Virus record (IMG/VR): IMGVR_UViG_3300049440_000162
Location: 1-40,368 of that record
Length of the DNA: 40,368 nucleotides
DNA from: a virus
Reading direction: 5' to 3' (one strand)
The notes under the pieces: model-generated
The model's database searches: none
What the model saw: the letters and a program-made list of their open reading frames with translations, nothing else
Told to the model about the DNA's origin: nothing
Position numbers and translations under genes: made by a program
In this document: in pieces, positions 1,856 to 25,930 of the stretch
Position numbering within the stretch: the stretch's first letter is position 1
Layout of the letters: the number at the start of each line of letters is the position of its first letter

Positions 1856-2794
1856 ATCGGGTTCTTAAGGTACCTGTACCAGCTTGATCTGGATCCGGCT
1901 GACGGCGCCTACGTGCCGTACGAGTTCCGGCCGATCAACATGAGCATGAGCCGTGATTTTGCGCGACGGGAGTCCGTGCTGGTGGTTCCGGGCGCGGATT
2001 CAGTGCTGGACGCTTTCGGCGCCGGCGCCGGCCCGATGGACCGGCGCGATCAATCGTTTTCGTTCCGCCGCTTCACCCACGGCAACAATGACGCCGTCTA
2101 CGATACGCTCGCCGCCTGGCTCGCGCCCGGTCTGCCGCTCCGCCTCGTCTACCAGACCGACCAGTTGGGGCTCTGGTATACCGTCGGCTACAATCCACGG
2201 ATCGCGCTGACGGAGACGTCGGGCGGCAACTGGGGCGAGGACGGGTATCTTGACTTCACCATTACCTGGCGCATCCGCCCCGACTGGCGCGCGCGGTTCA
2301 GCGAGGATAGCGAGCGCTTCACCTCCGTCTCCCGCTTCGCCCCCGGGACCGTCTTCGGCGGGACGGGGACGATACCGATCACCGCGAACCCGCAGGCGAT
2401 CTCGATCGATGCGCGCGGCACGGCGGGCCTCGATCTGCCCACCCTCCCCGACACCGGCGCAACGATCTCCGTGCATGGGCCGGTTGGCGGCAGTCTCGGC
2501 TTCCGGGTGACCAGTTTCTCCGCTTTCGCCGTCGATGCGTCGGGGACGAAGCAGCCACTGTACTTTGACGTGCCGTTCCCGCTGCCGCTCGCCACTGACA
2601 GCGTCACGCTCAACTTCGCGTCGCAGACGTTCCTGCATAACGGTGCGCCGTTTCGGCCGGTCAAGCCCGCATATCAATCGCACTACTGGGAGATCGCGCC
2701 CGGTGTGCTGAACGGTGGTCAGGTCGCCGCGCTCGGCACGTCCCCCCTGGTGGGCGGGCTGATCCGCTTCTCGTGGTTCCGTAAGCGCGCATAG
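1856..2794 (+). CDS. Distal tail protein (Dit-like), non-canonical start
   Basis: It lies directly after the tape measure, where the hub protein joining tail tube to tail tip is encoded in siphoviruses. The first in-frame GTG is at 1913, but the frame upstream is clearly coding (FLRYLYQLDLDPADG just before it) and looks like a distal-tail N-terminus. No ATG, GTG or TTG exists in frame upstream. An AGGTGAGGG ribosome site at 1840-1848 sits seven bases before an ATC at 1856, chosen here as a possible rare start; CTG at 1874 is the alternative. The C-terminal half is beta-rich. The TAG stop at 2792-2794 touches the left arm of a hairpin element. Function is inferred from position and general character. 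Confidence 0.65.
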   Translation: MGFLRYLYQLDLDPADGAYVPYEFRPINMSMSRDFARRESVLVVPGADSVLDAFGAGAGPMDRRDQSFSFRRFTHGNNDAVYDTLAAWLAPGLPLRLVYQTDQLGLWYTVGYNPRIALTETSGGNWGEDGYLDFTITWRIRPDWRARFSEDSERFTSVSRFAPGTVFGGTGTIPITANPQAISIDARGTAGLDLPTLPDTGATISVHGPVGGSLGFRVTSFSAFAVDASGTKQPLYFDVPFPLPLATDSVTLNFASQTFLHNGAPFRPVKPAYQSHYWEIAPGVLNGGQVAALGTSPLVGGLIRFSWFRKRA

Positions 2795-2909
2795 TGGTTC
2801 ACCGCATGCCGATCCTTGCCCCTTTGCACGAGACCGTGTCAGTGCGGTTCGCGGCAAAGGGGCAAGGATGTACCGCTACGAAGACGGTCACATGCATGCG
2901 GTGAACCAC
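2794..2909. repeat. Hairpin element HE1, long (nested) form
   Basis: Outer arms of 16 bp are perfect: GTGGTTCACCGCATGC at 2794-2809 and its complement at 2894-2909. Inside the outer core a second complete hairpin occupies 2812-2869 with 16-bp arms (ATCCTTGCCCCTTTGC and complement) and a 26-nt core. The inner unit sits between the leading CG of the outer core and its GTACC. The element starts on the last base of the upstream stop codon and ends 20 bases before the next start. It has no T-run, so it is not a standard terminator. Confidence 0.9.
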
Positions 2910-5421: not shown

Positions 5422-5774
5422 TGTTGGAAAGGAGTTTGCATGTGAATCCTGCCCATGCTGCCCAGCGGGCGCCCGCACCCGAGACCGTTACATCCTTGGC
5501 GGCTTGCCGCGAACCGCTCCAAAACGAGGTTAGGCGCCTGTCCGAGGATGAGTTGTGCTACCACCGGAGGGTCGTCGCGGCAGTGCAGGAAGCACGGCAG
5601 CGATTGGCGCTCGCGGAGGCAGTGGGGAGCGCGTGGTTCGCGCACCTGATGGAGCGCTACGGGCTCGCCGAGACCGATGTCGTCGAAGTCGATGGCGCCA
5701 TCACGCGCGTGTCCGCACCGCGGGACGCGCGTGTAGTGCGCGACACGGCATCGCCGTCTCCAAAGAAAGGCTAG
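5421..5774 (+). CDS. Small hypothetical tail-region protein
   Basis: A 117-residue protein translationally coupled to the hydrolase (TGATG). The N-terminal 32 residues are encoded by a decayed hairpin element (5426-5516) and are probably not part of the original fold; a second possible start is GTG 5442 with AAAGGAG upstream. The conserved-looking part is alpha-helical (LSEDELCYHRRVVAAVQEAR onward) and ends with a basic tail. The size and position fit a small tail-completion protein or linker, but no family is recognised. Confidence 0.55.
   Translation: MLERSLHVNPAHAAQRAPAPETVTSLAACREPLQNEVRRLSEDELCYHRRVVAAVQEARQRLALAEAVGSAWFAHLMERYGLAETDVVEVDGAITRVSAPRDARVVRDTASPSPKKG
5426..5516. repeat. 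Hairpin element HE2, truncated long form (remnant)
   Basis: A left arm-like segment at 5426-5439 ends in TTTGC and is followed by ATGTGA, the reverse-orientation core start. Further on, CGTTAC is followed at once by ATCCTTGGCGGCTTGC and CGCGAACCG, which matches a left inner arm plus half of the inner core as in HE1 and HE7. The right inner arm and right outer arm are missing. It looks like a long-form element that lost its right half and was absorbed into the reading frame. Confidence 0.45.
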
Positions 5775-5777
5775 CAG

Positions 5778-8096
5778 ATGGCGCGGCTGACCTGTTGGAC
5801 GGTCGGTGCGAACCCGGTCCCGCTCCTCACCTGTGTCGGCGGTACCGTCGTCCTGACCGAAATCGACCAGTTCACCGCGCATGACCTGGAGTTCGCGGCC
5901 GCCGATGCGCGCACGATCCAGGCGATGAAGGAATGGACCCTGCTCGAACTGGTGCAGGAGGGCGTCGGCACGATCGGCTACGGGTACGTCGTCAATCCCC
6001 GCCAGAGCGTCAGCGACCAGGGCGCGGGCACCATCCGCGTCAGCCTCGAGCAACTGACGCACGAGTTGACCTGGCACCGGACGCGGCGGGGCTGGCAGGC
6101 ACAGAACAACATCTCGATCGTCCAGGCACGCCTCGCGGCGCTGGCACCCGGCTGGACCGGCGTCTTTACGGACCTGTACACGGTGGACCCGCAAGGGAAC
6201 CCGCGCGATCTCACCGTGCAGGTGACACTGAACAACCCGACCGCACTCGGCGGCTATCTGCAACTCGCCCAACAGTTCTCACAGCATGCGCGCCTCGGCA
6301 CCCTCGTCGATGCGACCGGCAACCCGGCGCGCATCCTCGAGATGGGCCAGTTCGGCGCCGCCCCCACGGTGACCTTGCAGGATGCGAAGGGTGGCGATCT
6401 CGACGCCATGGGGCGCAACACGACCATGCGCGTCCCCGCCAGCGTCGAATGGCAGCCGAACAATGTCGAGGACTTCTGCAACGTCACGGTGCCATTTGGC
6501 GGCGGGCAGGACACGGATTCACTCGTCACGCTGGAACGCCTGTGGCGGATCATCAATGACCCCGCCTACCCGGATGTCGGGCGGTACGGTTCCGATGCCG
6601 ACTCGACGGCACGCACGGGGAGGGCGAGCCTGTTTCCTGAGTACGATCCCGCCTATCCGATCACGGACCCGGAGCATCCGCCCACGGGCACGATTCAGTA
6701 TGACGCGCAGGGGAATCTCCTCCAGGGGGCGTACAACACGCGCGGCGTCACCCTCGACGGGCACTATGACTACATCGTCTACGATGCCGCCAGTTATGCC
6801 ACCTACGGGCACAAGGAGACCAAAGACTATATCGATTCATCGCTGACCTACCCGTCCGCGGATCCCGCCGATCAGGTCTACACCGCGCGCGCTCTCTATG
6901 TCTCGGTGGTTGGGTTCTTCAAACGCTACGCGCACCCGCATCACGCCTTTACGTGCACCGTCAACGATGCGAACACGCTGCCGACACGCGCGGGCGACCT
7001 GGTCGCCACGGATTTCCAGCACGTCTCGGTGGCCGAGAACGCCGCGGTCGTGGAGATGAACATCACCGAGAGCATGCGGGTGATGCAGGTGACGCGGGCG
7101 TTCAACGGTGATGATCCCGCAGTGGACACGTACACCCTCTCGAATCTCGGGCGCTTTGATGCGACGGACGCCACGGGTGCGGCGGATACCGCGCAGACGA
7201 TCGTCGCCTTGCAGCGGCAACAGGGAACGGGCCTGGCTCCGTATACGCGCGACTTTGCGGGCAACATCGATGTCGCGAACCCGATCACCGTGTCCATCTA
7301 CGTGCCGCAGTTGCATTTCCGCTGGCACGAGTTCCGGGTGCAGTGCGACTGGCTCCCGTTTCGTGGCACGGCGACGACGGCACACACCATCCAGGGATCG
7401 CCGATCGTCACGGTCGGGGCCGTGGAAATCCTGATCGCGACGCCAGCGGACATCAACGCCGTCGCCGCGAATATCGGCGGTATCCCCGATCACGTGCACG
7501 GCATGGCGGTACTCGGCAACACACGGGCCTTCACCATCTCTAGCACGCCTGCCACGATCTCGCCAAATAACTACCTCTGGGTCGGCGGATCGGGAACCAA
7601 TCTGGTGCTGAACGCGAACAGCCTCACCGGCACGCTGTACACCGGCACGCCGCCGGGCAGCCATCAGCAGGTCAATCTCGATCCGACCGCGCATCCGCAC
7701 GTGGTCAAGAAGCAGGGGGAAACGGTGGGCCACCTTCCGGCGGGGACGGTGATCGGCCCCGTACCGGACCACGCGCATGACGTGGAGAAGCGCATCCCCA
7801 CCGGGCAACCCGCCCCTGCGTCCATCACCCTGACGATCAATGGGGTCAGCCTCTCCTCCGGTGCCTCGGTGCAGGGGACACGTGACCCGCTGCTTGGCAA
7901 CGCATTCACGTCAGCCTTTGTTGCCAATGACATCTCGGTGGAGATGGAGGCGGCCGGGAGGCCGGGATCGGTCGTCCCGCTCCGGTTTGACGCGGGCACG
8001 AGCGCGGGCAATCCCTTCGGGGTGGGTTTCCTGCAAATCTCGGTGACTGCGGTGGAGGAACTCGGCGGCCTGGCAAGCACCTTCCGCGCATCGTAA
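5778..8096 (+). CDS. Large tail-tip/baseplate-like structural protein
   Basis: A 772-residue protein, the largest after the tape measure, in the position of tail-tip or tail-associated proteins. The N-terminal half (about residues 20-230) resembles baseplate-hub type modules in style, with mixed alpha/beta and many aromatic residues. The middle has Asp/Tyr-rich loops. The C-terminal part (about 570-770) repeats His-Val-His-like turns (DHVHGMA, PHVVK, DHAHD), a pattern seen in trimeric fibres that bind metal through His clusters. No hydrolase motif is clear. The role in host contact is inferred from position and composition. Confidence 0.6.
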   Translation: MARLTCWTVGANPVPLLTCVGGTVVLTEIDQFTAHDLEFAAADARTIQAMKEWTLLELVQEGVGTIGYGYVVNPRQSVSDQGAGTIRVSLEQLTHELTWHRTRRGWQAQNNISIVQARLAALAPGWTGVFTDLYTVDPQGNPRDLTVQVTLNNPTALGGYLQLAQQFSQHARLGTLVDATGNPARILEMGQFGAAPTVTLQDAKGGDLDAMGRNTTMRVPASVEWQPNNVEDFCNVTVPFGGGQDTDSLVTLERLWRIINDPAYPDVGRYGSDADSTARTGRASLFPEYDPAYPITDPEHPPTGTIQYDAQGNLLQGAYNTRGVTLDGHYDYIVYDAASYATYGHKETKDYIDSSLTYPSADPADQVYTARALYVSVVGFFKRYAHPHHAFTCTVNDANTLPTRAGDLVATDFQHVSVAENAAVVEMNITESMRVMQVTRAFNGDDPAVDTYTLSNLGRFDATDATGAADTAQTIVALQRQQGTGLAPYTRDFAGNIDVANPITVSIYVPQLHFRWHEFRVQCDWLPFRGTATTAHTIQGSPIVTVGAVEILIATPADINAVAANIGGIPDHVHGMAVLGNTRAFTISSTPATISPNNYLWVGGSGTNLVLNANSLTGTLYTGTPPGSHQQVNLDPTAHPHVVKKQGETVGHLPAGTVIGPVPDHAHDVEKRIPTGQPAPASITLTINGVSLSSGASVQGTRDPLLGNAFTSAFVANDISVEMEAAGRPGSVVPLRFDAGTSAGNPFGVGFLQISVTAVEELGGLASTFRAS

Positions 8097-14074: not shown

Positions 14075-14650
14075 TCATCGCTTGCTTCCCTTGAAGAGTC
14101 GGCGCTGCTCCTCGAGCGTCAGTGACCGACCGCGGATCTCCTCAAGATTCGCGCGCGGGGAGACAATCCCCTGCGTAGTCTCTGATGTAGTCTCTGATGT
14201 AGTCTCTGATGTAGTCTCTGAATTAGCGTGGCGGTTTCCGCCATTCTTGTCTGGCGCTTTTGGACATTCAAGGATGGCGCTTTCCGCCATTACAGGATGG
14301 CGCTTTCCGCCATCCTTGGATGCGAGGTAATCGTCAACGGCATCGTTGAGTCGCTCCAGATTGACGCGATAGTAGAGCCGGGCCGGCGTACCGCGTTTGA
14401 CCTCTTCGAGGAACTGGCGGTCCTTGAGCACCTTCCGCGCCGTCTCCTGCTCTCGCCGCGACAGTCCCGTCTCCTCGGTCAACTCATCCTGCGTCTTGTA
14501 AATCCAGCCATCGGCGTCTTGCTGCCTGCCCGTCCATTGCACGAGGTTGCAGATGAAGACGCCCGCCGTGAGCGCGCCTGTGATCTGGGTCAGTTCCGGT
14601 TGGTAATAGATCGGGCGGCCGAGGCCGGTGAGGAAATCAGAGAATCTCAT
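14075..14650 (-). CDS. Winged-helix replication-initiator-like protein
   Basis: A 191-residue protein. Residues about 1-110 resemble the N-terminal winged helix of phage replication initiators (GALTAGVFICNLVQWTGRQQ, DGWIYKTQDELTEETGLSRR, then LKDRQFLEEVKRGTPARLYY as the wing). The region from about 110 to 165 is a low-complexity linker containing a fourfold SETT repeat encoded by 12-base tandem repeats. The end is a short basic helix. GGGAGG precedes ATG 14650, which lies 14 bases inside the upstream HNH gene. The iteron-like repeats inside it recall phages whose origin lies in the initiator gene. Confidence 0.65.
   Translation of the reverse strand: MRFSDFLTGLGRPIYYQPELTQITGALTAGVFICNLVQWTGRQQDADGWIYKTQDELTEETGLSRREQETARKVLKDRQFLEEVKRGTPARLYYRVNLERLNDAVDDYLASKDGGKRHPVMAESAILECPKAPDKNGGNRHANSETTSETTSETTSETTQGIVSPRANLEEIRGRSLTLEEQRRLFKGSKR
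14176..14223. repeat. Four 12-base tandem repeats
   Basis: TAGTCTCTGATG occurs four times head to tail, the last copy ending in AAT. On the minus strand it encodes Ser-Glu-Thr-Thr repeats. A repeat number multiple of three bases keeps the frame, so slippage is tolerated. It may be part of an origin array with the adjacent inverted repeats. Confidence 0.85.
14229..14315. repeat. Three short dyads (candidate origin iterons)
   Basis: Copies at 14229-14245, 14272-14291 and 14295-14315 share the dyad TGGCGxTTTCCGCCAT (x is G or C), each able to form a short hairpin. They are read in different frames of the protein gene, so the DNA sequence rather than the peptide is repeated. Position inside a replication-type gene and next to tandem repeats suggests a replication origin. 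Confidence 0.55.
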
Positions 14651-16443: not shown

Positions 16444-16863
16444 ATGCCTGAGATCGCAGCCGCGGGTATCCCCACCATTGTTGCCTACCTCACGGCGCCA
16501 CGCGCGGATGAAGAAGCGTTTGCCAAGAAGCGCACTGCACGCTCTCGTGCAAACGCTTCTTCAGCTATCGGTCACGAGGGTATGCCAGACGCATGCTTGA
16601 CCGACGCATCTTTTTACATTTTGGATCACCCGATGCCGTGTACAGCCGAACTGTCACATGCATCGGGTGATCCAACTCCCGCGAGAGGGGGTGAGGGGGA
16701 TGGACGGGAAACTGATCCGCGAGGGCGACCTGGTGGACCAGCTGATGGACTTCAACGCGCGGCTGATGCAGCGCAACCGGGAGGACCAGCGCGCGCTTTG
16801 GATCACCCGATGCCGTGTACAGCCGAACTGTCACATGCATCGGGTGATCCAAACGACGACTGA
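16444..16863 (+). CDS. Small early gene extended by hairpin elements
   Basis: ATG 16444 follows AGGAGG and comes two bases after the previous stop. The first 22 residues (MPEIAAAGIPTIVAYLTAPR) look native. The rest of the 139-residue frame passes through three hairpin elements (16509-16563, 16621-16675 and the copy at 16798-16852) and overlaps the next gene by 164 bases, so most of it is probably not original protein. Removing the first 55-base element gives a short product of about 33 residues ending near 16600. No function can be assigned. Confidence 0.4.
   Translation: MPEIAAAGIPTIVAYLTAPRADEEAFAKKRTARSRANASSAIGHEGMPDACLTDASFYILDHPMPCTAELSHASGDPTPARGGEGDGRETDPRGRPGGPADGLQRAADAAQPGGPARALDHPMPCTAELSHASGDPNDD
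16509..16563. repeat. Hairpin element HE3
   Basis: Perfect 15-bp arms TGAAGAAGCGTTTGC and complement around a 25-nt core. The core stem is AGCG/CGCT and the bulged C is kept. It lies inside the frame that starts at 16444. Confidence 0.85.
16621..16675. repeat. Hairpin element HE4
   Basis: Perfect 16-bp arms TTGGATCACCCGATGC and complement around a 23-nt core beginning CGTGTACAG and ending CTGTCACAT. It is identical over 55 bases to HE5 at 16798, but the flanks differ. It lies just upstream of the ribosome site of the next gene. Confidence 0.9.
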
Positions 16864-16945
16864 CCGAGTTGGCGCTCGCACTCGAACAGCGCCGGCGCAA
16901 ACACGCGCCAATCGACATGCCGACAGCAGACGGGCAAACGTCTGA
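16700..16945 (+). CDS. Small early gene frameshifted by a hairpin element
   Basis: ATG 16700 follows a GA-rich ribosome site. Residues 1-33 (MDGKLIREGDLVDQLMDFNA and on to QRAL) form a good helical N-terminus. HE5 then interrupts the frame; as read, translation ends at 16945 after a poor-quality Thr/Arg-rich stretch. If the 55 bases 16798-16852 are removed, the frame continues as RRLTELALALEQRRRKHAPI and a short tail to a TGA at 16956-16958, with much better codon bias. So either the gene is broken by the element or the hairpin is bypassed. The protein family is unknown. Confidence 0.6.
   Translation: MDGKLIREGDLVDQLMDFNARLMQRNREDQRALWITRCRVQPNCHMHRVIQTTTDRVGARTRTAPAQTRANRHADSRRANV
16798..16852. 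repeat. Hairpin element HE5 (twin of HE4)
   Basis: Same 16-bp arms and 23-nt core as HE4; one further T-A pair extends the stem to 17 bp. It sits inside a coding sequence, and its length (55, not a multiple of three) shifts the frame. Exact removal restores an open frame. Confidence 0.9.
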
Positions 16946-16986
16946 GGCGGCGGAGTGAACTGGATCCTGCTTAGGAGATTGTACAC

Positions 16987-17250
16987 ATGGAATCATCAAT
17001 GGTCAAGGAATCAATGGGAAGCCCTTTGCATGTGACCGCAGAGGACGGTACACGGCAAAGGGCTTCCCACCCTCCTGTCGTCATGGCGGACGAATCGGCA
17101 TGGGTGCGGCTGCTCGCCCCGCGGAGCCCACAGGAGGCAGCGATGGCGCAGCGGATTGCCGTGGCGTCGCGGCACATCTGGGCATTCCGCCTTCGTCTCA
17201 CGGTGGAGGAGCGCATGGCGTGGTATCGCGCATGGGGGTGGCAGGAATGA
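16987..17250 (+). CDS. Small hypothetical protein with N-terminal hairpin insertion
   Basis: An 87-residue protein. HE6 encodes about residues 10-28, in frame. The rest (MADESAWVRLLAPRSPQEAA onward) is helical with several Arg and Trp. AGGAG lies 11 bases before ATG 16987; ATG 17083, after the element, is a possible original start. The stop overlaps the next start (ATGA). No family is recognised. Confidence 0.55.
   Translation: MESSMVKESMGSPLHVTAEDGTRQRASHPPVVMADESAWVRLLAPRSPQEAAMAQRIAVASRHIWAFRLRLTVEERMAWYRAWGWQE
17015..17069. repeat. Hairpin element HE6
   Basis: Perfect 15-bp arms TGGGAAGCCCTTTGC and complement around a 25-nt core in the reverse orientation. Its arm shares AAGCCCTTTGC with HE7. 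It lies near the 5' end of the gene starting at 16987 and keeps the frame open. Confidence 0.9.
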
Positions 17251-17888
17251 GTCGGAAAGAGCCCGCGCGTCCGACGCATGAGGACGCGAAAGCGATCCGC
17301 CGGGCCGTCGCGTATCTGGAGAAGCTTGGCCGCCTGGACGAACTCCAGCGCGCGGTGATGGCGGATGTCGCGGACATCCTCGACGAGGCGCTCACGAGCG
17401 GAGCGGTGATCCGGATCCGCATCCTGAATCAGGGGACGCCACCGAGCGAGAGGAAGCGACAGGCGGCGCGGGCCACGCTGGTCAAGGCGCGCGCCAGGAA
17501 GTTCGTCTACGCGGCGCCCGAGTGGACGTCGGAGGAGAACGTGCTCTTCCGCCACCTGTGGGCGGAGACGGACACGCCAACCGGGGTGATTGCCGACCGT
17601 TTCGGGCGCACGCCGACCGCGGTACAGAATCATGCGACGGAGCTGGGCGTGCGTCGATCTCCGGGCTATCTGGCACGCACGACGCCACTCGGTCGCGCGC
17701 GTCTGGTGATCGCGCGGCGGCGGGCGCAGGAGCAGTTGGCACAACGGAATTTGGAAAGCCCTTTGCACGAGAGCGTGGAGTGCGCTTCATCCTTCTCCGC
17801 TTGCCGCGAACCGTCTCTGTGCGGTCTCGTGCAAGCGGAGAAGGATCGGCAAAGGGCTTTCCAACAGGAACTGGTGGAAGTGATATGA
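17247..17888 (+). CDS. Myb/homeodomain-like DNA-binding protein
   Basis: A 213-residue protein. Residues about 10-60 are helical (EDAKAIRRAVAYLEKLGRLD). Residues about 90-135 form a SANT/Myb-like helical module: EWTSEENVLFRHLW, then GVIADRFGRTPTAVQNHATE, resembling helix-turn-helix proteins that read DNA with a third helix. The C-terminal 38 residues come from the in-frame long hairpin HE7; native sequence returns only for the last few residues. Start and stop both overlap neighbours by four bases (ATGA). Its neighbour is the RecT-like gene. A regulatory or recombination-accessory role is inferred. Confidence 0.6.
   Translation: MSRKEPARPTHEDAKAIRRAVAYLEKLGRLDELQRAVMADVADILDEALTSGAVIRIRILNQGTPPSERKRQAARATLVKARARKFVYAAPEWTSEENVLFRHLWAETDTPTGVIADRFGRTPTAVQNHATELGVRRSPGYLARTTPLGRARLVIARRRAQEQLAQRNLESPLHESVECASSFSACREPSLCGLVQAEKDRQRAFQQELVEVI
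17751..17864. repeat. Hairpin element HE7, long (nested) form
   Basis: Outer 16-bp perfect arms TTGGAAAGCCCTTTGC (17751-17766) and complement (17849-17864). A complete inner hairpin at 17789-17846 has 16-bp arms ATCCTTCTCCGCTTGC and complement and a 26-nt core nearly the same as the inner core of HE1. The inner unit sits at the same site of the outer core as in HE1. At 114 bases it keeps the host frame and encodes 38 residues. Confidence 0.92.
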
Positions 17889-18883
17889 CAACAACGTCGA
17901 CCCGGTCGGTGACCATCCGACCGGAACTGGAGATCAGCTCAGAGGAGCGGTTCTCGCACGAGGACATCGAACTGATGCGCGCCACGATCTGCAAGGGCGC
18001 GAGCGATGCGGAGTTCCGGCTGTTCCTGAACCAATGCGTGCGCACGGGGCTGGATCCGTTGGCACAGCAGATCTACAGCGTGCCGCGCGACGGTGGGCGC
18101 GTGATCCAGGTGGCGATTGACGGCTATCGGCTGGTCGCGCAGCGCACGGGCGCCTACGCGGGCAATGACGAACCGACGTTCGACACCGAGGAGGGCGAGC
18201 ATCCGAACATCGCCCGCGTGACCGTCTGGCGGCTCGTGGATGGTGAACCGCGTTCGTTCACGGGGATCGCGCGGTGGCAGGAGTTCAAGCCGCCGCCCCG
18301 CCAGGACATGATGTGGCTGAAGATGCCGTGGCACATGCTGGCAATGGCCGCGGAACGGCAGGCGCTGCGGAAGGCGTTCCCGCAGGAACTGGCCGGGCTG
18401 GAAACGAGCGACGATCCGCCGGTTGAAGGCCCTCATGCCGCGTACCGCCAAGACGGTCACGTGCATGAGGGCCTTCAAGAGGCGACACCGGCGCGCGTCA
18501 TCCGCACCGCGCCACCGCCGCAGCCGATCGCCCGGCCCCGCGCAGGTGGTTCCTCACGGTCACAACTCCGTGAAACAGTCGCGAACGCTGCACGGACCGC
18601 GATCAAGGCGACCATCGCCCCGATTGGTTCACCCGATGCACGTGACCGTGCAGTGCGGTACGCGGCATCGGGTGAACCAATACCGGCGGGACCGGATGAA
18701 GAAGACGCAGTGCTGCGGGACGAACTGCGCGAGCTGGGCACGCGCGGGTTCGACCTCGACAAGTTCCTGACGGGGCGAAACAAGGAACTGGACGACCTGA
18801 CGCGCGGGGAGCTGGAGGGGATCCTGCCGAACGCGCGAGCGGTGGTGGCGAAGCGGGTGGAGCGGCTGACGCAGCAGGCATAA
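17885..18883 (+). CDS. RecT/Bet-family single-strand annealing recombinase
   Basis: A 332-residue protein. Residues about 20-175 match the Bet/RecT annealase core: RATICKGASDAEFRLFLNQC, RTGLDPLAQQIYSVPR, GYRLVAQRTGAYAG and an AMAAERQALRKAFPQEL helix. It anneals complementary single strands for recombination and repair. The C-terminal region has two hairpin elements in frame (HE8, HE9), separated by a Pro/Arg linker, before a conserved-looking end (LRDELRELGTRGFDLDKFLT and on), probably a partner-binding helical module. It starts in an ATGA overlap. It is longer than usual for Bet-type proteins, partly because of the insertions. No partner exonuclease of RecE or Exo type is seen. Confidence 0.85.
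   Translation: MTTTSTRSVTIRPELEISSEERFSHEDIELMRATICKGASDAEFRLFLNQCVRTGLDPLAQQIYSVPRDGGRVIQVAIDGYRLVAQRTGAYAGNDEPTFDTEEGEHPNIARVTVWRLVDGEPRSFTGIARWQEFKPPPRQDMMWLKMPWHMLAMAAERQALRKAFPQELAGLETSDDPPVEGPHAAYRQDGHVHEGLQEATPARVIRTAPPPQPIARPRAGGSSRSQLRETVANAARTAIKATIAPIGSPDARDRAVRYAASGEPIPAGPDEEDAVLRDELRELGTRGFDLDKFLTGRNKELDDLTRGELEGILPNARAVVAKRVERLTQQA
18423..18478. repeat. Hairpin element HE8 in the recombinase gene
   Basis: Perfect 16-bp arms TTGAAGGCCCTCATGC (18423-18438) and complement (18463-18478) around a 24-nt core beginning CGCGTACCG and ending CGGTCACGT. It lies in the disordered linker after the annealase core, and the recombinase frame stays open through it. Confidence 0.92.
18624..18680. 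repeat. Hairpin element HE9 in the recombinase gene
   Basis: Perfect 16-bp arms TTGGTTCACCCGATGC and complement (one more A-T pair outside) around a 25-nt core in the reverse orientation. Its arm differs from HE4 at one base, and the other arm carries the matching change. Its 57 bases keep the frame. Confidence 0.92.
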
Positions 18884-18944
18884 CAGGTCAGAGTTGGGCG
18901 GGTGCGGCAGCGCGCCCGCTTTTGTATCGGAGAGGGAGGCAGCG

Positions 18945-19430
18945 ATGGACACGCGACCATACGGCACGATCCCGAGTGACGAAGACTTCGCGGACACCGA
19001 TTGGCTGTCCGCGGCGGACCTTGAAGCGATCGCGGATCGGCTGATCGAGACGAAACCCGACCTGCAGCATCTGTACGACTTCAAGACGGTTTATTTCTGG
19101 AAGCGTTCGGGGGGCGTGACGGGCGGGCAGGCGACGATGGGGAAGTGCCGCCGCGTCTCAGGCGATCTGAAAGCGATGGCGCCGGGCGCCGACTTCATGG
19201 TCTGGCTCGCGGCGGATCATTGTCGGGAACAGGAGATCACCGTCTATCAGGCGGAAGCCTATGTGTTTCACGAACTGATGCACACAGCACAGGACGACAA
19301 GGGCAGGCCGCGCATCCGGCCGCACGACTTCGTGGGTTTCGCCGCGGAAGTCAGAGAGTTTGGACTCTACGACCAGATGCTCCAGGCCGCCGGTGTTGCC
19401 TTCCAACAGTTGGCTTTGGTGCCTGCGTAA
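18945..19430 (+). CDS. Putative phage metallopeptidase
   Basis: A 161-residue protein with a zinc-peptidase motif: VFHELMH (His109, Glu110, His113). A third ligand may be one of the downstream residues in RPHDFVGFAAEVREFG. The small size and sequence style fit putative phage metallopeptidases seen in early regions. GGAGG precedes ATG 18945. The target is unknown; a host or defence protein is possible. Two hairpin elements separate it from the replication gene. Confidence 0.7.
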   Translation: MDTRPYGTIPSDEDFADTDWLSAADLEAIADRLIETKPDLQHLYDFKTVYFWKRSGGVTGGQATMGKCRRVSGDLKAMAPGADFMVWLAADHCREQEITVYQAEAYVFHELMHTAQDDKGRPRIRPHDFVGFAAEVREFGLYDQMLQAAGVAFQQLALVPA

Positions 19431-19433
19431 CGG

Positions 19434-19489
19434 CTGGGAAAGGGTTTGCCGTGTCGAGTACCGGCTCGCACACGCAAACCCTTTCCCAG
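19434..19489. repeat. Hairpin element HE10
   Basis: Perfect 16-bp arms CTGGGAAAGGGTTTGC and complement around a 24-nt core whose inner stem is CGAG/CTCG, a full compensatory replacement of the usual ACCG/CGGT. It starts three bases after the metallopeptidase stop. Confidence 0.92.
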
Positions 19490-19515
19490 AATGTGCCCGC
19501 TTGTGTATCGGGTCA

Positions 19516-19571
19516 TCGGTTGACCCGTTGCCGTGTACGGCCGGCACCGTCACACGCAACGGGTCAACCGA
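19516..19571. repeat. Hairpin element HE11
   Basis: Perfect 16-bp arms TCGGTTGACCCGTTGC and complement around a 24-nt core beginning CGTGTACGG. It is 26 bases after HE10 and 19 bases before the replication gene start. The arms are unrelated to those of HE10. Confidence 0.92.
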
Positions 19572-19590
19572 ACCAAGGACGGGGGCGCCG

Positions 19591-20541
19591 ATGGCGCGGT
19601 TGCCATGGTTTCGGATGTGGTCGGAGGCACGAAACGATGCGAAGTTGCGTCGGCTGGATGATGCGGAGTTCCGTGTCTGGTTCAATCTGCTGTGCTTCGC
19701 AGCCGAGCAGGAAGAGCGCGGTCACATCGCCCGGAGCGACGCGTTTCTCCTGGCCGTTGAAGTGTGCAACGGCGATGTCCCACTGCTGAAACGCGCGGTG
19801 GCGTTACTGGCGTTACATCATCTCGTCCGTGCGGAATGGTGCATTGAGGCGGAGCAGGATGCGGTCACGATCACGTTCGCAAGTTGGGATCGCCGCCAAT
19901 ATGACAAACCGTCCGACCGGCCAGAAGCCGTTGCAGAGCGGGTAAAACGGCATCGCGCGAAAAATGAAACGCCTCGTAACGCGGCTGAAACGCGCGAAAA
20001 CGCGCGTAACGCTGAGATTAGATTAAGAGAAGAGAAGAAGAGAGAAGAGAAGAGACCTCCCATAGACATACCCGGTCCCCGCGCGCCCGCACCCGCGCCC
20101 GCACGCACACCTGCGCGCGAGGCGCCGCCTGCTCCGGTGGCTGCGGTTGTGAATGCGCTGACCCAGGCACTTGCGTATGACGAGGATGCCCGGCTCTCGG
20201 CGAAGGAACACGATCGGCTCGTGGCATCGGCGACGGAGATCCTCGGCGCGGGCGGCACGCCGGAGGATGTGCCGGTCCGGGCGGAACGCTACGCCCGGAA
20301 GTACCCATCGATCGCGGTGACGCACGGCGGCCTGGCGGGGCACTGGGGCGAGTTGGCGGTCGAGCCACCGGCACGTGCCCCGCCGAATGGACGTGGTGCC
20401 CCGGTCACGTTCACGCGACAAATCGAGACGAATAACGCGGCCGCATCCGAGGAATTTCTCGCCGTCATGGAAGGCGCGGCACATGGATCATCTGCAGTTC
20501 AACGGCCAAATGAACCGCCTCGCGGCCGCCTACCGGATTGA
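19591..20541 (+). CDS. Replication initiator / DnaD-like protein
   Basis: A 316-residue protein. The N-terminal 110 residues resemble phage replisome organiser domains (MARLPWFRMWSEARNDAKLR, DDAEFRVWFNLLCFAAEQEE, then a winged-helix-like LLKRAVALLALHHLVRAEW). A highly charged segment (REEKKREEKR) and a Pro/Ala-rich linker follow, and then a small helical C-terminal domain. In such phages this protein binds the origin and recruits the helicase through the loader encoded next. It overlaps the next gene by 59 bases. The ribosome site is weak. Confidence 0.7.
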   Translation: MARLPWFRMWSEARNDAKLRRLDDAEFRVWFNLLCFAAEQEERGHIARSDAFLLAVEVCNGDVPLLKRAVALLALHHLVRAEWCIEAEQDAVTITFASWDRRQYDKPSDRPEAVAERVKRHRAKNETPRNAAETRENARNAEIRLREEKKREEKRPPIDIPGPRAPAPAPARTPAREAPPAPVAAVVNALTQALAYDEDARLSAKEHDRLVASATEILGAGGTPEDVPVRAERYARKYPSIAVTHGGLAGHWGELAVEPPARAPPNGRGAPVTFTRQIETNNAAASEEFLAVMEGAAHGSSAVQRPNEPPRGRLPD

Positions 20542-21022
20542 GATCCCGGCAGCGACCAGGGCGGCATACTGGACCATCTTTGGTTCGGGCGATGATGCGC
20601 GCTTCGCGACCGCATGTGAGCAGGCCCTGCGGACGGAGCGCAGCTTTCCGACGCCGGCCGCGCTCAGCGAACTCATCAACGGCTCGGTGGAAATCCGGCG
20701 TCGGACGGGAGTCGCTGGCGGGTCAGGCGGGCCGCCGCGTCAGTGGACCGCCGCGGACTTCGACGTGCCGTTCGTGGCGAAGCCGACGCCCTGGCGGCCC
20801 GGCTCGCGTGCACACGAGCGATGGCTGCACGCATCGGCGCGGTTGATGACGCTGCTCGAGCGCCGGCTGACCGAGCGCCTGGCGGAACTGGACAACCGGC
20901 CCGATGATCCCGAGCTGCAGCGCCGCGTCCTGGTGCTGACGCGCACGCTGGCCGAGCGGAGCACCTGGCACGCGCACTTCGAGGCGACCGGGGAATCCCT
21001 GATGCCCGCAGGTGCCCCATGA
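20483..21022 (+). CDS. Helicase-loader-like replication protein
   Basis: A 179-residue protein. Residues about 10-70 (YRIEIPAATRAAYWTIFGSG, then FPTPAALSELINGSVEIRRR) match in style the N-terminal domain of phage helicase loaders and replication P-type proteins, which read a short helical bundle ending in a Phe-Pro-Thr motif. The C-terminal half is helical and Arg-rich. Position directly after the initiator supports the role, which remains inferred. It overlaps the next gene as ATGA. Confidence 0.55.
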   Translation: MDHLQFNGQMNRLAAAYRIEIPAATRAAYWTIFGSGDDARFATACEQALRTERSFPTPAALSELINGSVEIRRRTGVAGGSGGPPRQWTAADFDVPFVAKPTPWRPGSRAHERWLHASARLMTLLERRLTERLAELDNRPDDPELQRRVLVLTRTLAERSTWHAHFEATGESLMPAGAP

Positions 21023-21345
21023 GTACCCCCCGCGCCATCATCGACGCGCACACCACGGAGGCGGAGTTTCAGTGGCAGCTCATGCAACTGGCGCGCTTGT
21101 GCGGGTTCATGTGTTATCACCCGTTTGACTCGCGCCGCTCCGCGATTGGCTATCCCGACCTCACACTCGTCCATGCCGAGCGTGGCCAACTCGTCTTTCT
21201 TGAGGCAAAACGCGAGTCAGGGAAGACGACGCCGGCGCAGGACGCATGGCTCATCGCGCTCGGTGCGGTGCCGGGCGTTGTCGCGCGGGCGGTCCGGCCT
21301 TCCGATTGGGAAACGATCGCGGCAATCCTGACGGGAGATGGTTGA
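21019..21345 (+). CDS. VRR-NUC domain nuclease
   Basis: A 108-residue protein covering the whole VRR-NUC fold: an N-terminal Glu in TEAEFQWQL, Asp47 in GYPDLTLV, and Glu62-x-Lys64 in FLEAKRESGKTT, the PD-(D/E)xK catalytic set. Stand-alone phage VRR-NUC enzymes cleave branched DNA and are thought to resolve replication or packaging intermediates. The start is in an ATGA overlap, and the stop overlaps the antitoxin start (TGATG). Confidence 0.85.
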   Translation: MSTPRAIIDAHTTEAEFQWQLMQLARLCGFMCYHPFDSRRSAIGYPDLTLVHAERGQLVFLEAKRESGKTTPAQDAWLIALGAVPGVVARAVRPSDWETIAAILTGDG

Positions 21346-21593
21346 TGGCACACGCACTGCATCCGATCCAGGCCCTGGCGCCGCCGCCGGTTACCGGCGA
21401 TCAGCGCATCTCCTCCACCGATCTCTACCGCCGACTCGGTGACGTGCTCCATCGCGTTTCGCGCGGCCATCAGCGGGCCATCATCACGACCCACGGTCGG
21501 CCCGTCGTCGCGATCATCTCCGTCGAGGAGTTGGAGTGCCTGCGGGCGATCGAACGTGAGTGGCGCGCGCAGCGTGGGGAGGAATCGCCATGA
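21345..21593 (+). CDS. Phd/YefM-like antitoxin
   Basis: An 82-residue protein. Residues about 22-60 fit the Phd/YefM N-terminal DNA-binding fold: SSTDLYRRLGDVLHRVSRGH followed by RAIITTHGRPVVAIISVEEL. The C-terminal helix would bind a toxin. No toxin gene of RelE, Doc or YoeB type follows, as the next gene is a transporter. It may repress its own region or neutralise a host toxin. Both ends overlap neighbours by a few bases, so it is an integral operon gene. Confidence 0.75.
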   Translation: MAHALHPIQALAPPPVTGDQRISSTDLYRRLGDVLHRVSRGHQRAIITTHGRPVVAIISVEELECLRAIEREWRAQRGEESP

Positions 21594-22384
21594 GTGCGCC
21601 TCTCGACCTCGCGGCCGTGCGAAACGCGCGAAAAGGCAATCCACACCGTTCTGCCCGTTTGCGCGTCGTCTGGGGCATCTCAGCCGCACTCCTGTATCTC
21701 CTGTGCATCATCGGCGCCAACTGGCTGCTCGCCACGTTCGGCGTCGTCACGGTCTTCGGACTCGCGATGCCCGCGGGCGTCTTCGCCGCCGGCGTCAGTT
21801 TCGGCGCGCGCGACTGGCTTCAGGAGACGGCGGGGCGGCCGGCGGTCATCCTCGGCATCGCCGTCGGGGCGATCCTTTCGACGGTCGTCTCACCCCTCCG
21901 GTACGCGCTCGCCAGCGGACTGGCGTTCCTGTGCAGTGAGACGTGCGACATGCTGGTCTACAGCCCACTGCGCACGAACCATCGTGCCTGGGCCGTGACC
22001 GCGTCGAATACGGTGGGCGCCGTCGTCGATAGCGCCGTGTTTCTGCTCATCGCTTTTGGCAGTCTCGCATTCTTCTGGGGGCAGGTGATCGGGAAAGAAC
22101 TCATGATTCTGCCGGCGCTCGTGGTCCTCTGGTTGGCGCGACGGCGGCGGGCCGTCGCGCGCACGACGAAGGATGAAGCAATGCCAACCCCAGCGATGAA
22201 TGGCCCGGGTGCATGCGGGAAGGAGTGCCCGCTTGCGGGAGGCAAGGTTGCGGGCAACACCTGTCCGTGGATCGACCACTGCGCGATGTGGCGCGACGAA
22301 CTGGCCTTCGAGCGGTTGGAGCAGCGGGAGAAGGCGGAGCGGCTGGCGAAAGAGCACCCAGAGATGTTTCGCGGTCCGCGGTGA
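21590..22384 (+). CDS. VUT/YhhQ-family queuosine-precursor transporter with Cys-rich tail
   Basis: A 264-residue membrane protein with about five to six membrane segments between residues 25 and 180. Family-like features are ANWLLATFGVV, a GARDWLQETAGR loop, SGLAFLCSETCDMLVYSPLR and ASNTVGAVVDSAVFLLIAFG, which fit the VUT (YhhQ, DUF165) transporters that import preQ0/preQ1. After a basic stretch comes a cytoplasmic tail with CGKEC, GNTCPWIDHC and a charged helix, not usual for the family. A start at 22182 could give that tail as a separate small zinc protein. The stop lies inside the left arm of HE12. Confidence 0.75.
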   Translation: MSAPLDLAAVRNARKGNPHRSARLRVVWGISAALLYLLCIIGANWLLATFGVVTVFGLAMPAGVFAAGVSFGARDWLQETAGRPAVILGIAVGAILSTVVSPLRYALASGLAFLCSETCDMLVYSPLRTNHRAWAVTASNTVGAVVDSAVFLLIAFGSLAFFWGQVIGKELMILPALVVLWLARRRRAVARTTKDEAMPTPAMNGPGACGKECPLAGGKVAGNTCPWIDHCAMWRDELAFERLEQREKAERLAKEHPEMFRGPR

Positions 22385-22433
22385 ACCCTTTGCCGTGTAC
22401 GGCTGGAACCGTCACATGCAAAGGGTTCACCGC
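22378..22433. repeat. Hairpin element HE12
   Basis: Perfect 16-bp arms GCGGTGAACCCTTTGC and complement around a 24-nt core beginning CGTGTACGG and ending CCGTCACAT. The TGA stop of the transporter gene is inside the left arm, as with HE1. Confidence 0.92.
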
Positions 22434-22442
22434 TCACATGTG

Positions 22443-22480
22443 GGAAGGGGTTTGCGTGATGGCGGGCCATACACGGCGAA
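22443..22480. repeat. Hairpin element HE13, decayed copy
   Basis: Ten bases after HE12. The core in reverse orientation keeps GTGATGG and CCATACACGGC with the bulged C and a compensatory ATGG/CCAT stem. The left arm ends in TTTGC but the right arm is no longer complementary. The next gene's ribosome site and start codon lie inside it. Confidence 0.5.
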
Positions 22481-22758
22481 TGCCGGGGGAATCGACGGTG
22501 TATCAACGCCTGGCGCGGCGGGGCTTCCCGGTCATCGGGCATTACCTCGGTGCCGTCCTGACGTGGCCTGCGTATGCCGATAGCGAGAGGGTGGAGTCCG
22601 AAGTGGCCCGCATCGAAGCGGCATTCCCGTTCACACCGGAGTTTGAGGGTCTGATTGAGAACACGGACGCAATCAGTGAACTCCCGTATCAGCCACGGCA
22701 CTTCTCCTCGGACATCGACCACATGAAGCGGGCGGGGAAGCCGGAGGAAACACCATGA
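22459..22758 (+). CDS. Hypothetical protein
   Basis: A 99-residue protein with no recognised domain; the C-terminal half is acidic with a Pro-rich end. ATG 22459 follows GGAAGGGG; ATG 22438 is an alternative. The ribosome site and the first codons fall in the decayed hairpin HE13, so the element may supply the translation start. It overlaps the next gene as ATGA. Confidence 0.55.
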   Translation: MAGHTRRMPGESTVYQRLARRGFPVIGHYLGAVLTWPAYADSERVESEVARIEAAFPFTPEFEGLIENTDAISELPYQPRHFSSDIDHMKRAGKPEETP

Positions 22759-23036
22759 TTCAAGTCACTGAGGAAGCATGGTCAGGACTCAAGGACGAGG
22801 TGAAGTACCTCCGCACCGCCATTGCCGAGCGGGAGGAGGAGGCTTTGCGTGTGAGCGCACTACACGCCACACAGCAAAGCCTCCTCCTTGCTCGTATCGC
22901 CGCGCTCGAAGAGGCGTTGGCGTTCTATGCGGCAGATGACGGGGGCTGTTCCTTTGCCGACTATGACGTTGACACCAAGCGATTCGGCAAGCACGCCCTC
23001 GCCGCGCTCACCCAGGCGGCGGAAGGGGCTGGATGA
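22755..23036 (+). CDS. Coiled-coil protein carrying a hairpin element
   Basis: A 93-residue protein. Residues about 8-55 form a continuous amphipathic helix or coiled coil (LKDEVKYLRTAIAEREEEAL, then SLLLARIAALEEALAFYAAD). HE14 lies in the middle of it, in frame, and its translation (ALRVSALHATQQ) still suits a helix. The C-terminal 35 residues contain a GGCSFADYD turn and an Ala-rich helix. No family is recognised. Confidence 0.6.
   Translation: MIQVTEEAWSGLKDEVKYLRTAIAEREEEALRVSALHATQQSLLLARIAALEEALAFYAADDGGCSFADYDVDTKRFGKHALAALTQAAEGAG
22834..22888. repeat. Hairpin element HE14
   Basis: 15-bp arms AGGAGGAGGCTTTGC and complement, plus a G-T pair outside, around a 25-nt core. The core is the most diverged of the intact copies but keeps the bulged C and a GCG/CGC inner stem. 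It lies in frame in a coiled-coil gene. Confidence 0.75.
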
Positions 23037-24153: not shown

Positions 24154-24642
24154 ATGGTGGCGATGGTTGACGATACACACCGCACGATCCCGCCTTTCCC
24201 GTGGGGGGCGCTCCGGTTCATCTTCACCTCCGGGGGCGACTATTCATCCGACCGGACGCTGATGCCCGTCACGATGACCGCGCACCGCAGTTCCGATGGC
24301 ATCCGCGGTGCGGCGCTCGCACGCGCCAACTGGGGGCCCGTGACGACCGCGATTCAGCGCGCCTTCCACGAGTCGCGGGAGCGTCACCACCTGCATGCTT
24401 CACATTGGAAAGTGCTGATCGCCTGCGAAGTTGGGATGGTCCAGCGTCCGGATAGTCGCGGGCGGCTCCAATGGTGCGTCTATTCCGCCGCGCATCCGAA
24501 CTCGGTGGTGCCCGATGACGAGGCCGCGCGGCTGTTTGGGATCACCGCGGGCTCGGTGCGCATCTACCATACGCAGGTGCGCCACGCCATCGAGGACGAG
24601 TGGGAAGACTTGCATGCAGGCTGGTCGCTTGACGGTCCTTGA
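24154..24642 (+). CDS. HTH protein, probable late-transcription regulator
   Basis: A 162-residue protein. The C-terminal part has a helix-turn-helix (DDEAARLFGITAGSVRIYHT followed by QVRHAIEDEW) like the last region of sigma-type and ArpU/RinA-like phage activators. The N-terminal half is a mixed domain with GALRFIFTSGGDYSSD. The start is taken at ATG 24154, with GGAGGTGA five bases upstream and just after the previous stop; ATG 24115 is possible. Being last in the early operon and directly before the packaging genes, it is well placed to switch on late transcription. This is inference. Confidence 0.6.
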   Translation: MVAMVDDTHRTIPPFPWGALRFIFTSGGDYSSDRTLMPVTMTAHRSSDGIRGAALARANWGPVTTAIQRAFHESRERHHLHASHWKVLIACEVGMVQRPDSRGRLQWCVYSAAHPNSVVPDDEAARLFGITAGSVRIYHTQVRHAIEDEWEDLHAGWSLDGP

Positions 24643-24657
24643 CAGTTTGTATATGCT
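24629..24657 (+). promoter_or_regulatory. Candidate promoter before the methyltransferase/packaging genes
   Basis: TTGACG (24629-24634) and TATGCT (24652-24657) are 17 bases apart in an unusually AT-rich patch at the end of the regulator gene. A second TTGACA at 24639-24644 has no matching -10. The strength is uncertain; it may need an activator. Confidence 0.4.
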
Positions 24658-24679
24658 TTACAGCAACACTCGTACTGTC

Positions 24680-24706
24680 CCCGGCAGCCCGCCGGGTTTT
24701 GTTTTG
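24680..24706 (+). terminator. Intrinsic terminator or attenuator
   Basis: CCCGGC (24680-24685), five-base loop, GCCGGG (24691-24696), then TTTTGTTTTG. It lies after the early operon and 18 bases before the next coding sequence. It could end early transcription, or, sitting downstream of the candidate promoter at 24629, act as an attenuator for late genes. Confidence 0.75.
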
Positions 24707-24724
24707 CCCGCCAGTGAGGGTGCC

Positions 24725-25930
24725 ATGCGCAGCGATCGTCTCGGTGCACTGACGCCGGATCGGCGGAATGCGCGACGCCACACACCCCGCAACATCGGCA
24801 TGATCGAGACGAGCCTGCAAACCGATGGCTTCGGTCGTTCCATCCTCCTCGACCGTGACGGCAACATTCTCGCCGGCAATGGCGTCACCGAGGCGGCCGG
24901 AAATGTCGGCCTCGAGGATGTGATCGTCGTACCGTCCGATGGCACGAAGGTGATCGCCATTCAGCGCACCGATGTGGAACCGGGCAGCGCGCGCGCCGTC
25001 CGCCTCGCCATCGCGGACAACCGCACGCAGGAGTTGAGCGACTTTGATCCGGCGGTGATTGCCGCGCTCAGTGAAGAGATCGACCTGTCGGACTTCTGGC
25101 AGGCGGATGAGATGGACGCGCTCCTGGCGGGCATCACTGAGGACGTGCCTGCTGGCGATGATCCGGGTGCGGAGATGGATCGCGGCGATGAACTCGCGGC
25201 AGAGTACGGGGTTGAGCCAAATCAGCTTTGGGTGCTCGGCAGGCATCGGCTGATCGTGGGCGACTGCACCGATGACGCGACGATTGATCGCCTGATGGAT
25301 GGACAGCGTGCAGCAATGGTCTTCACTGATCCGCCCTATGGCGTGGACTATGATGGCGGGCTGAACGAGACGAAGCGCGACCGGATCATCGGTGACACCT
25401 CCGCCTCGCTCTATGCCGCCTGCATCGGCACGACCGCGCCATACTGCAATCCGCACGCACCGTGGTATCTCTGGTTTGCCGGCACGGTCGGCAAACCAGT
25501 CTATGAGGCCGTCGAGTATTACGGATACACCGTGCGCGCAATGATCGTCTGGAATAAGACCGATGCCCATTACGGCAACTTCATGGCGCAGTACATGCAG
25601 AAGCACGAACCCTGCCTGTACTGCGTGAAGGAGTCGCCGCAGTGGTACGGCCCCACGAATGAAGTGACCGTTTGGGATGTGAAGCAACCGAGCGTCAACG
25701 AGCATCATCCGACACAAAAGCCCATAGAACTCGCGGTGCGAGCGATTGAGAACAGCAGTGTGCGGGGTGCGCTCGTCTGCGATTGGTTCCTCGGCAGCGG
25801 CACGACCCTGATTGCCTGCGAGCAGATGGGGCGTACCTGCTACGCCGCAGAGATTGAACCGCGCTATGCCGCCGTCTCCATCAAGCGATGGGCAGACATG
25901 ACGGGCCTCACGCCGCGACGGGTGGACTGA
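24725..25930 (+). CDS. ParB-domain DNA methyltransferase (first of a tandem pair)
   Basis: A 401-residue fusion. Residues about 10-110 form a ParB/Srx-like N-terminal domain (DGFGRSILLDRDGNILAGNG, then IADNRTQELSDFD). Residues about 165-395 are an N6_N4-type DNA methyltransferase of the beta order: catalytic DPPYG (202-206) first and the SAM-binding FLGSGTT (about 356-362) last, pointing to adenine-N6 or cytosine-N4 methylation. Such fusions are common near terminase genes and probably protect phage DNA from restriction. GTGAGGG precedes ATG 24725. Its last 42 bases are repeated exactly at the end of the next gene. Confidence 0.85.
   Translation: MRSDRLGALTPDRRNARRHTPRNIGMIETSLQTDGFGRSILLDRDGNILAGNGVTEAAGNVGLEDVIVVPSDGTKVIAIQRTDVEPGSARAVRLAIADNRTQELSDFDPAVIAALSEEIDLSDFWQADEMDALLAGITEDVPAGDDPGAEMDRGDELAAEYGVEPNQLWVLGRHRLIVGDCTDDATIDRLMDGQRAAMVFTDPPYGVDYDGGLNETKRDRIIGDTSASLYAACIGTTAPYCNPHAPWYLWFAGTVGKPVYEAVEYYGYTVRAMIVWNKTDAHYGNFMAQYMQKHEPCLYCVKESPQWYGPTNEVTVWDVKQPSVNEHHPTQKPIELAVRAIENSSVRGALVCDWFLGSGTTLIACEQMGRTCYAAEIEPRYAAVSIKRWADMTGLTPRRVD

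What the first reader, a model, noticed from the sequence alone, without database searches (positions are those of the whole stretch)
16509..22888. A family of covarying hairpin elements scattered through the early operon
About 14 copies (12 clear, two decayed) occur at 2794, 5426, 16509, 16621, 16798, 17015, 17751, 18423, 18624, 19434, 19516, 22378, 22443 and 22834. Each clear copy has 15-17 bp arms that vary in sequence but remain perfectly or almost perfectly complementary, and most arms end in TTGC or ATGC. The core follows one plan: CG, a 3-bp stem (Y-G-W), one bulged C on the 3' side, a 4-bp upper stem, and a 4-8 base loop. The upper stem appears as ACCG/CGGT, ACGG/CCGT, ACAG/CTGT, CGAG/CTCG, AGCG/CGCT and ATGG/CCAT, full compensatory changes. 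The Y-R and W-W pairs of the lower stem covary too, with one A-G mismatch in HE3. The bulged C is present in every core that can be folded. Structure, not sequence, is kept, as expected if a protein or ribosome reads the folded strand. I do not recognise a described family with variable arms and this bulged core; Rickettsia palindromic elements are the nearest known idea.
Basis: partly seen in the sequence, partly recalled or inferred. Interest (0 to 1): 0.95.

Follow-up and report, generated by a model that had tools for sequence, protein, structure and literature searches.

The report
Jumping DNA hairpins in phage genomes
This phage and dozens of related phage contigs carry a previously uncatalogued family of 55-base DNA hairpins that jump cleanly into new sites, even in frame inside essential genes and inside one another, which matters because how such a tiny hairpin with ever-changing but always matching arms moves is unknown.

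Summary
The window holds 12 intact hairpins (arms of 15 bp or more; 0 in 60 shuffled sequences), two of them inserted inside two further, interrupted copies, plus two remnants. The same hairpin occurs in 39 of 47 IMG/VR records searched, about 70 distinct elements from several phage lineages. It is absent from 131 loci of mostly more distant relatives. One core pattern gave a single armless match in 85,000 prokaryote genomes. Covariation is overwhelming: 98.1% of cells paired, score 0.684 against 0.157 shuffled. The elements are mobile. Near-identical genomes show clean empty sites (54 and 56 bp, 66/66 flanking bases identical, no target duplication), copies nest in each other, and RecT and a portal-like gene carry in-frame insertions. 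About 39% lie antisense to the nearest supported gene, so an mRNA element is unlikely. Arms are strictly Watson-Crick (3 G.T in 840 pairs) and unlinked to cores. Loops occur in both orientations (21 reverse-complement pairs against 0 reverse). Best reading: a non-autonomous, REP/MITE-like mobile hairpin moved in trans by an unidentified structure-reading enzyme. It lacks the REP tag, and no Y1 transposase was found in 36 records. Mobility is well shown; the enzyme, and how arms are renewed, are not.

The parts
16508..16564 (+). intact hairpin element, 15-bp perfect arms; core CAAGAAGCG-CACTGCA-CGCTCTCGT with an A-G mismatch
   Evidence: CM R1 64 bits
16621..16675 (+). intact hairpin element, 16-bp arms; identical to 16798-16852
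16798..16852 (+). intact hairpin element, second copy identical including arms, different flanks
17014..17070 (-). intact hairpin element, reverse orientation
   Evidence: 73 bits
17751..17864 (-). outer hairpin element (16-bp perfect arms) interrupted by the inner element 17789-17846
17789..17846 (+). intact hairpin element nested in 17751-17864
18423..18478 (+). intact hairpin element inside the RecT-like gene, open reading frame kept
18624..18680 (-). intact hairpin element inside the RecT-like gene; an exact 19-residue in-frame insertion relative to four homologues
19434..19489 (+). intact hairpin element just after the stop codon of the metallopeptidase-like gene
19516..19571 (+). intact hairpin element just upstream of the next gene
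22378..22433 (+). intact hairpin element at the 3' end of the Vut_1-like gene; also present in close relative L036/G028
22833..22889 (-). intact hairpin element inside a small ORF; also present in L036/G028
2794..2909 (+). outer hairpin element (16-bp perfect arms) interrupted by inner element 2812-2869
2812..2869 (-). intact hairpin element nested in 2794-2909
22441..22490 (-). decayed remnant: recognisable 5' arm, degenerate 3' arm
   Evidence: sequence; below CM threshold
5424..5520 (.). decayed, apparently once nested remnant: left halves TTGGAAAGGAGTTTGC (5424-5439) and ATCCTTGGCGGCTTGC-CGCGAACCG (5492-5516) without 3' arms
   Evidence: sequence; below CM threshold
17885..18880 (+). RecT-like single-strand annealing gene carrying two in-frame elements

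Best explanation
These are non-autonomous mobile DNA hairpins of phages. Each unit (15-16 bp arm, a bulged inner core, matching arm; about 53-57 bp) inserts cleanly at a new site without duplicating or deleting target bases, in either orientation, and survives where it does little harm: at gene ends, in frame in protein linkers, or inside another copy. Shown: the family, the structure, precise presence/absence, nesting, in-frame insertion, spread over several phage lineages. Inferred: that an enzyme supplied in trans, probably by the host, reads the folded single strand through the WTGC arm end, the two bulges and the G.T pair, in the way REP transposases and IS200/IS605 transposases read bulged hairpins; and that arms are renewed as perfect complements by copying one arm from the other rather than by stepwise compensatory mutation.
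For: Empty sites: G007 (L008) versus L233, 66/66 flanking bases identical, 54 bp inserted at ctac^aggt; G009 (L010) versus G005, 66/66 identical, 56 bp inserted next to a stop codon; G005 versus G007, 57 bp, 91% score; G033 versus L229, 97%. No target-site duplication among 70 sites. Two identical copies in different flanks. Nesting inside other copies in about 9 of 74 elements. RecT 18624 is an exact 19-residue insertion against four empty homologues; similar in-frame insertions in RecT 18423, a portal-like gene and a G004 gene. Found in 39 of 47 records, not in 131 of 152 loci reached through portal and capsid. Core invariants: bulged C 67/67; WTGC kept even when the search pattern does not ask for it (35 of 36 stretches are the same loci). 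Arms: 3 G.T in 840 pairs; arm distance about 6.2 of 15 whatever the core distance. Orientation 38:24 to nearest supported gene.
Against: No candidate enzyme: no Y1_Tnp in 36 records, and no host genome with the family (one core pattern only). No fixed tetranucleotide at the foot and no GTAG/CGTC tag. Both strands fold equally well with DNA energies (mean -22.5 and -23.0 kcal/mol), so strand-specific reading rests on the sequence asymmetry alone. Direction (gain rather than precise loss) is inferred from most homologues being empty. Net insert length varies between the core plus 30, 31 or 32 bases, so the exact ends are not fixed. Only tolerated insertions are visible.
Confidence: 0.62

Rival explanations
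1. RNA regulatory or processing element: the hairpin works in the transcript (protein binding, RNase site, terminator, translational signal) and compensatory mutation under selection keeps the fold.
For: Strong covariation; invariant bulges and a G.U pair in 58 of 65; many copies at gene ends; mild, non-significant sense excess 38:24.
Against: About 39% antisense; arms almost free of G.U, whereas REP-type elements thought to act as RNA often show G.T pairing (PMC3733652); copies sit inside coding sequence in frame; sites differ between close relatives.
Confidence: 0.12
2. Passive hairpins: spread only by general phage recombination, with perfect arms kept by quasi-palindrome correction (template switching) and no dedicated enzyme.
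For: Arms perfect and nearly G.T-free; arms of interrupted outer copies are still 15-16 bp perfect although their core is broken; arm and core unlinked; loops occur in both orientations, as expected of recombination between inverted stems.
Against: Precise insertion of the unit alone with no flanking homology; template switching would also erase the bulges and the G.T pair, which are kept.
Confidence: 0.15
3. Ends of, or derivatives from, an IS200/IS605-type or REP-type system, moved by a host TnpA(REP) that was not sampled.
For: Bulged hairpin, no target duplication, many copies, strand-asymmetric core; in E. coli REP the bulged C27 is contacted by TnpA (PMC8266576).
Against: No GTAG or CGTC tag and no fixed cleavage tetranucleotide; no Y1_Tnp in phage records; the conserved part is the inner core, not the foot.
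Confidence: 0.2
4. A sub-question: the repeated CG^TG insertion of ATC-type arms reflects one old nesting event that has since diversified, so independent nesting is rarer than it looks.
For: 5 of 5 insertions at that site carry ATC-type arms versus 1 of about 70 others, Fisher p=3e-7.
Against: Nesting at at least four other positions, including in an arm; inner orientation relative to the outer copy differs between cases.
Confidence: 0.4

Closest known systems
REP sequences (GTAG- or CGTC-tagged) with TnpA(REP)
   Same: Small bulged hairpins in many copies; stem changes are complementary; presumed non-autonomous elements moved in trans; a bulged C matters for recognition in E. coli REP (PMC8266576, PMC3733652).
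   Different: REP stems are 5-13 bp with a tag at the foot; here arms are 15-16 bp, variable to the foot, no tag, and the constant part is the inner core. Found in phages only so far; no Y1 gene in the phage records.
Rickettsia palindromic elements (RPE)
   Same: Palindromic elements inserted in frame in unrelated protein genes (PMC10969869).
   Different: RPEs are about 150 bp bacterial elements; these are 53-57 bp with a bulged core, in phages, and also between genes and inside each other.
MITEs
   Same: Short, non-autonomous, inverted-repeat ends.
   Different: Classical MITEs have terminal repeats of constant sequence and leave target duplications; here arms vary and no duplication is seen.
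Integron attC sites
   Same: Folded strand with extrahelical bases, variable stem sequence (own knowledge).
   Different: In attC the ends are constant and the middle varies; here the reverse. No cassettes seen between copies; the integrase was not searched for.
Cluster K mycobacteriophage extended start-associated sequences
   Same: Phage repeats with inverted arms of about 17 bp (own knowledge; term seen).
   Different: Those sit at translation starts with a constant sequence; these do not.
Mitochondrial GC clusters and double-hairpin elements
   Same: Tiny mobile hairpins without their own gene (PMC4478555, PMC5910586; titles and abstracts).
   Different: Different sequence, structure and genome type.

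Membership tests
REP / REPtron | GTAG or CGTC tetranucleotide at the foot of the hairpin | tested here: not met
   In 70 elements GTAG occurs 2 times near the left foot and 0 near the right, CGTC 1 and 2; no 4-mer dominates outside the arms
REP / REPtron | Associated TnpA(REP)/Y1 transposase gene in the same genome | tested here: inconclusive
   0 of 36 phage records, many are fragments; host unknown
REP / REPtron | Imperfect palindrome with a bulge or mismatch | tested here: met
   Bulged C 67/67, second bulge, G.T pair 58/65
IS200/IS605 ends | Insertion without target duplication | tested here: met
IS200/IS605 ends | Fixed short target/cleavage motif next to the hairpin | tested here: not met
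   No conserved flanking motif
Classical MITE | Terminal inverted repeats of constant sequence with target-site duplication | tested here: not met
   Arms differ by about 6 of 15 positions; no duplication
Rickettsia palindromic element | In-frame insertion in protein genes | tested here: met
   RecT twice, portal-like gene, G004 gene; many other copies are between genes
Rickettsia palindromic element | Sequence relation to an RPE family | not tested
   No RPE library searched beyond Rfam (no match)
Structured RNA family | Match to a known Rfam family | tested here: not met
   No match at gathering threshold; weak unrelated matches only
Intrinsic terminator | Hairpin followed by a T run in transcript orientation | tested here: not met
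   No T enrichment 3' of the element; copies inside translated genes
attC site | Conserved end boxes recognised by an integron integrase, flanking cassettes | tested here: inconclusive
   Ends vary and the inner core is constant, which argues against; the integrase gene was not searched

The most novel reading that the evidence does not exclude
A mobile hairpin with a new life cycle: the constant bulged core is the heritable part, while both arms are rewritten together as a perfect complementary pair (one arm copied from the other) and the tip flips freely, so arms, lower stem, upper stem and loop reassort as separate concentric layers. This would be a self-templating palindromic element unlike any known transposon, moved by an unknown structure-reading enzyme.
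Probability: 0.22. Interest if true: 0.9.

Novelty: new variant of a known kind. Interest (0 to 1): 0.72.

Why it matters
If true, several phage lineages, presumably sharing hosts, carry a common pool of one of the smallest kinds of mobile element, with clean empty sites, nested copies and in-frame insertions in recombination and structural genes. It gives a natural data set (about 70 distinct copies, clear presence/absence) for asking how a hairpin without a gene moves, which enzyme reads a bulged single strand, and whether strong covariation can arise from copying between arms rather than from selection on an RNA. The last point is a warning for covariation-based RNA discovery.

Tried and rejected
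Target-site duplication: none. Arms derived from the target: empty sites contain neither arm; arm 12-mers outside elements are mostly remnants or matches in coding sequence. Arm sequence set by flanking bases: mutual information shows only the position-16 pair clearly. Y1 transposase in the phages: none. Candidate phage gene shared by all element-bearing contigs: only structural genes and HNH nucleases stood out; no convincing mobiliser. Strand choice by folding energy: both strands equal. DNA similarity to GenBank phages: none. Host through genome contigs: the single pattern scan gave one armless hit, in an archaeon, judged chance. Bypass or intron-like removal: not needed, since genic copies keep the reading frame. 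Literature searches for phage hairpins of this kind returned nothing matching.

Full report
OBSERVATION. The window is an IMG/VR virus record of 40,368 bases with a RecT-like gene, portal, major capsid and ParB/methyltransferase genes. A pattern-free search finds 12 hairpins with perfect arms of 15 bp or more and a 23-26 nt core; 60 Markov-1 shuffles give none. Two of them (2812-2869, 17789-17846) lie inside the core of two further hairpins whose 16-bp arms are still perfect (2794-2909, 17751-17864). 5424-5520 and 22441-22490 are remnants below the detection limit of the covariance model.

STRUCTURE. Searches of viral contigs with core patterns and a structure scanner gave 67 distinct elements. 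Alignment A1 of 65: 16-bp arm ending WTGC; an unpaired C or T; G paired with T (58) or C (6), once A with T; YGW stem; NNNG/CNNN upper stem; 5-10 nt loop; invariant bulged C on the 3' side. Counting pairs: 98.1% of cells paired, 18 of 24 pairs with changes on both sides, covariation score 0.684 against 0.157 in shuffles and at most 0.155 when slid. A relaxed pattern that does not demand WTGC returned 36 stretches, 35 of them already known, so WTGC is not a search artefact. Rfam has no such family.

DISTRIBUTION. Model R1 matches 39 of 47 records, in phages of several lineages: relatives of the window (portal at least 84% identical), lineages whose portals are only 39-42% identical, and a second group (G002, G004, G010, G012, G020, G025) that shares few structural genes with the first. 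Of 152 loci found through portal and capsid, 131 carry none; these are nearly all of the more distant relatives plus some short close ones. One core pattern scanned over 85,000 prokaryote genomes gave a single match without arms. That pattern covers about two thirds of cores, so absence from cellular genomes is likely but not proven.

MOBILITY. Joining flanks in a script and comparing with relatives gives empty sites. L008/G007 versus L033/L233: all 66 flanking bases identical, 54 bp inserted at ctac^aggt. L010/G009 versus L038/G005: 66/66 identical, 56 bp inserted beside a stop codon. G005 versus G007 (57 bp, 91%) and G033 versus L229 (56 bp, 97%) agree. No duplication or loss of target bases is seen in the two perfect cases, and the 70 sites together show no duplication. 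Two copies in the window are identical including arms but have different flanks. About 9 of 74 elements are nested in another copy, one contig has a triple nest, and one insertion lies in an arm. In RecT the copy at 18624 is an exact 19-residue insertion against four empty homologues; 18423, a portal-like gene (G029/G014) and a gene of G004 carry in-frame copies too. Orientation to the nearest supported gene is 38 same, 24 opposite (p=0.098).

ODD GENETICS. Among outer arm pairs only 3 of 840 are G.T and 7 mismatched, although arms of different elements differ at about 6 of 15 positions. Stepwise compensatory change should leave G.T intermediates. Arm distance is the same (about 6.2) whether cores differ at 1 or 14 positions; cores identical over 25 nt can carry arms differing at 7-9 of 15 positions. 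Loops recur both directly (36 pairs) and as reverse complements (21 pairs), never reversed or complemented (0, 0), so the tip has flipped relative to the bulges. Loops also recombine with different upper and lower stems. Interrupted outer copies keep perfect arms. This suggests arms are renewed together by copying one from the other, and that inner layers are exchanged or inverted by recombination. This is inference.

MECHANISM. The best account is a non-autonomous mobile hairpin read as a folded strand by an enzyme acting in trans. For this speak the invariant bulges and G.T pair (which plain palindrome correction would erase), the clean insertion without duplication, and the analogy with TnpA(REP), which contacts a bulged C and acts on one strand (PMC8266576). 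Against membership in REP: no GTAG or CGTC foot tag, no fixed flanking motif, no Y1_Tnp in 36 records. Both strands fold equally well. The host and the enzyme are unknown.

UNEXPLAINED. All five nested insertions at the CG^TG position of an outer core have arms beginning ATC, against 1 of about 70 others (p=3e-7). Either arms guide insertion there, or the composites descend from one event and then diversified. Net insert length is the core plus 30, 31 or 32 bases.

VERDICT. Observation confirmed and extended. Interpretation partly supported: structure is kept, but the elements are mobile DNA, not an operon regulator. Novelty: a new variant of a known kind (REP/RPE/MITE-like palindromic elements), with a real chance of a new replication mode.

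Noticed in passing
G026:2272-2343 and 7802-7873; G012:13718-13803; G019:19318-19403: Longer versions of the element (72 or 86 nt) whose loop is replaced by an extra structured insert; arms and lower core unchanged.
   Followed up: partly
window 2812, 17789; G039 5952; G019 17570; G002 8779: Every insertion at the CG^TG position of another element's core has arms beginning ATC(C/T)T.
   Followed up: partly
G005:12906-12968, G016:8577-8639, G030:12677-12739: A different recurring hairpin (GAGTGTTTCACGG ... CCGTGAAACACTC, 37-nt spacer) in three contigs.
   Followed up: no
G006:3220-3395: Cluster of palindromic CGGCAGATTCTGCC-type repeats.
   Followed up: no
G012:36830-36910: Hairpin with element-like 15-bp arms ending TTGC but an unrelated 51-nt middle.
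   Followed up: no
window 21560-22381: Vut_1-type membrane gene (a family that includes queuosine-precursor transporters) in a phage, shared with G004, G006, G013, G015, G026, G028, G032; hints at modified DNA or tRNA.
   Followed up: no
window 24431-25930: ParB-like domain fused to a DNA methyltransferase.
   Followed up: no
L133:2615-3454 and family (9 contigs, 18 copies); L106:2199-3116 family (6 contigs): HNH endonuclease families repeated in element-bearing contigs; whether linked to the hairpins is untested.
   Followed up: partly
window 14265-14322: Unrelated imperfect inverted repeat CATTCAAGGATGGCGCTTTCCGCCAT.
   Followed up: no
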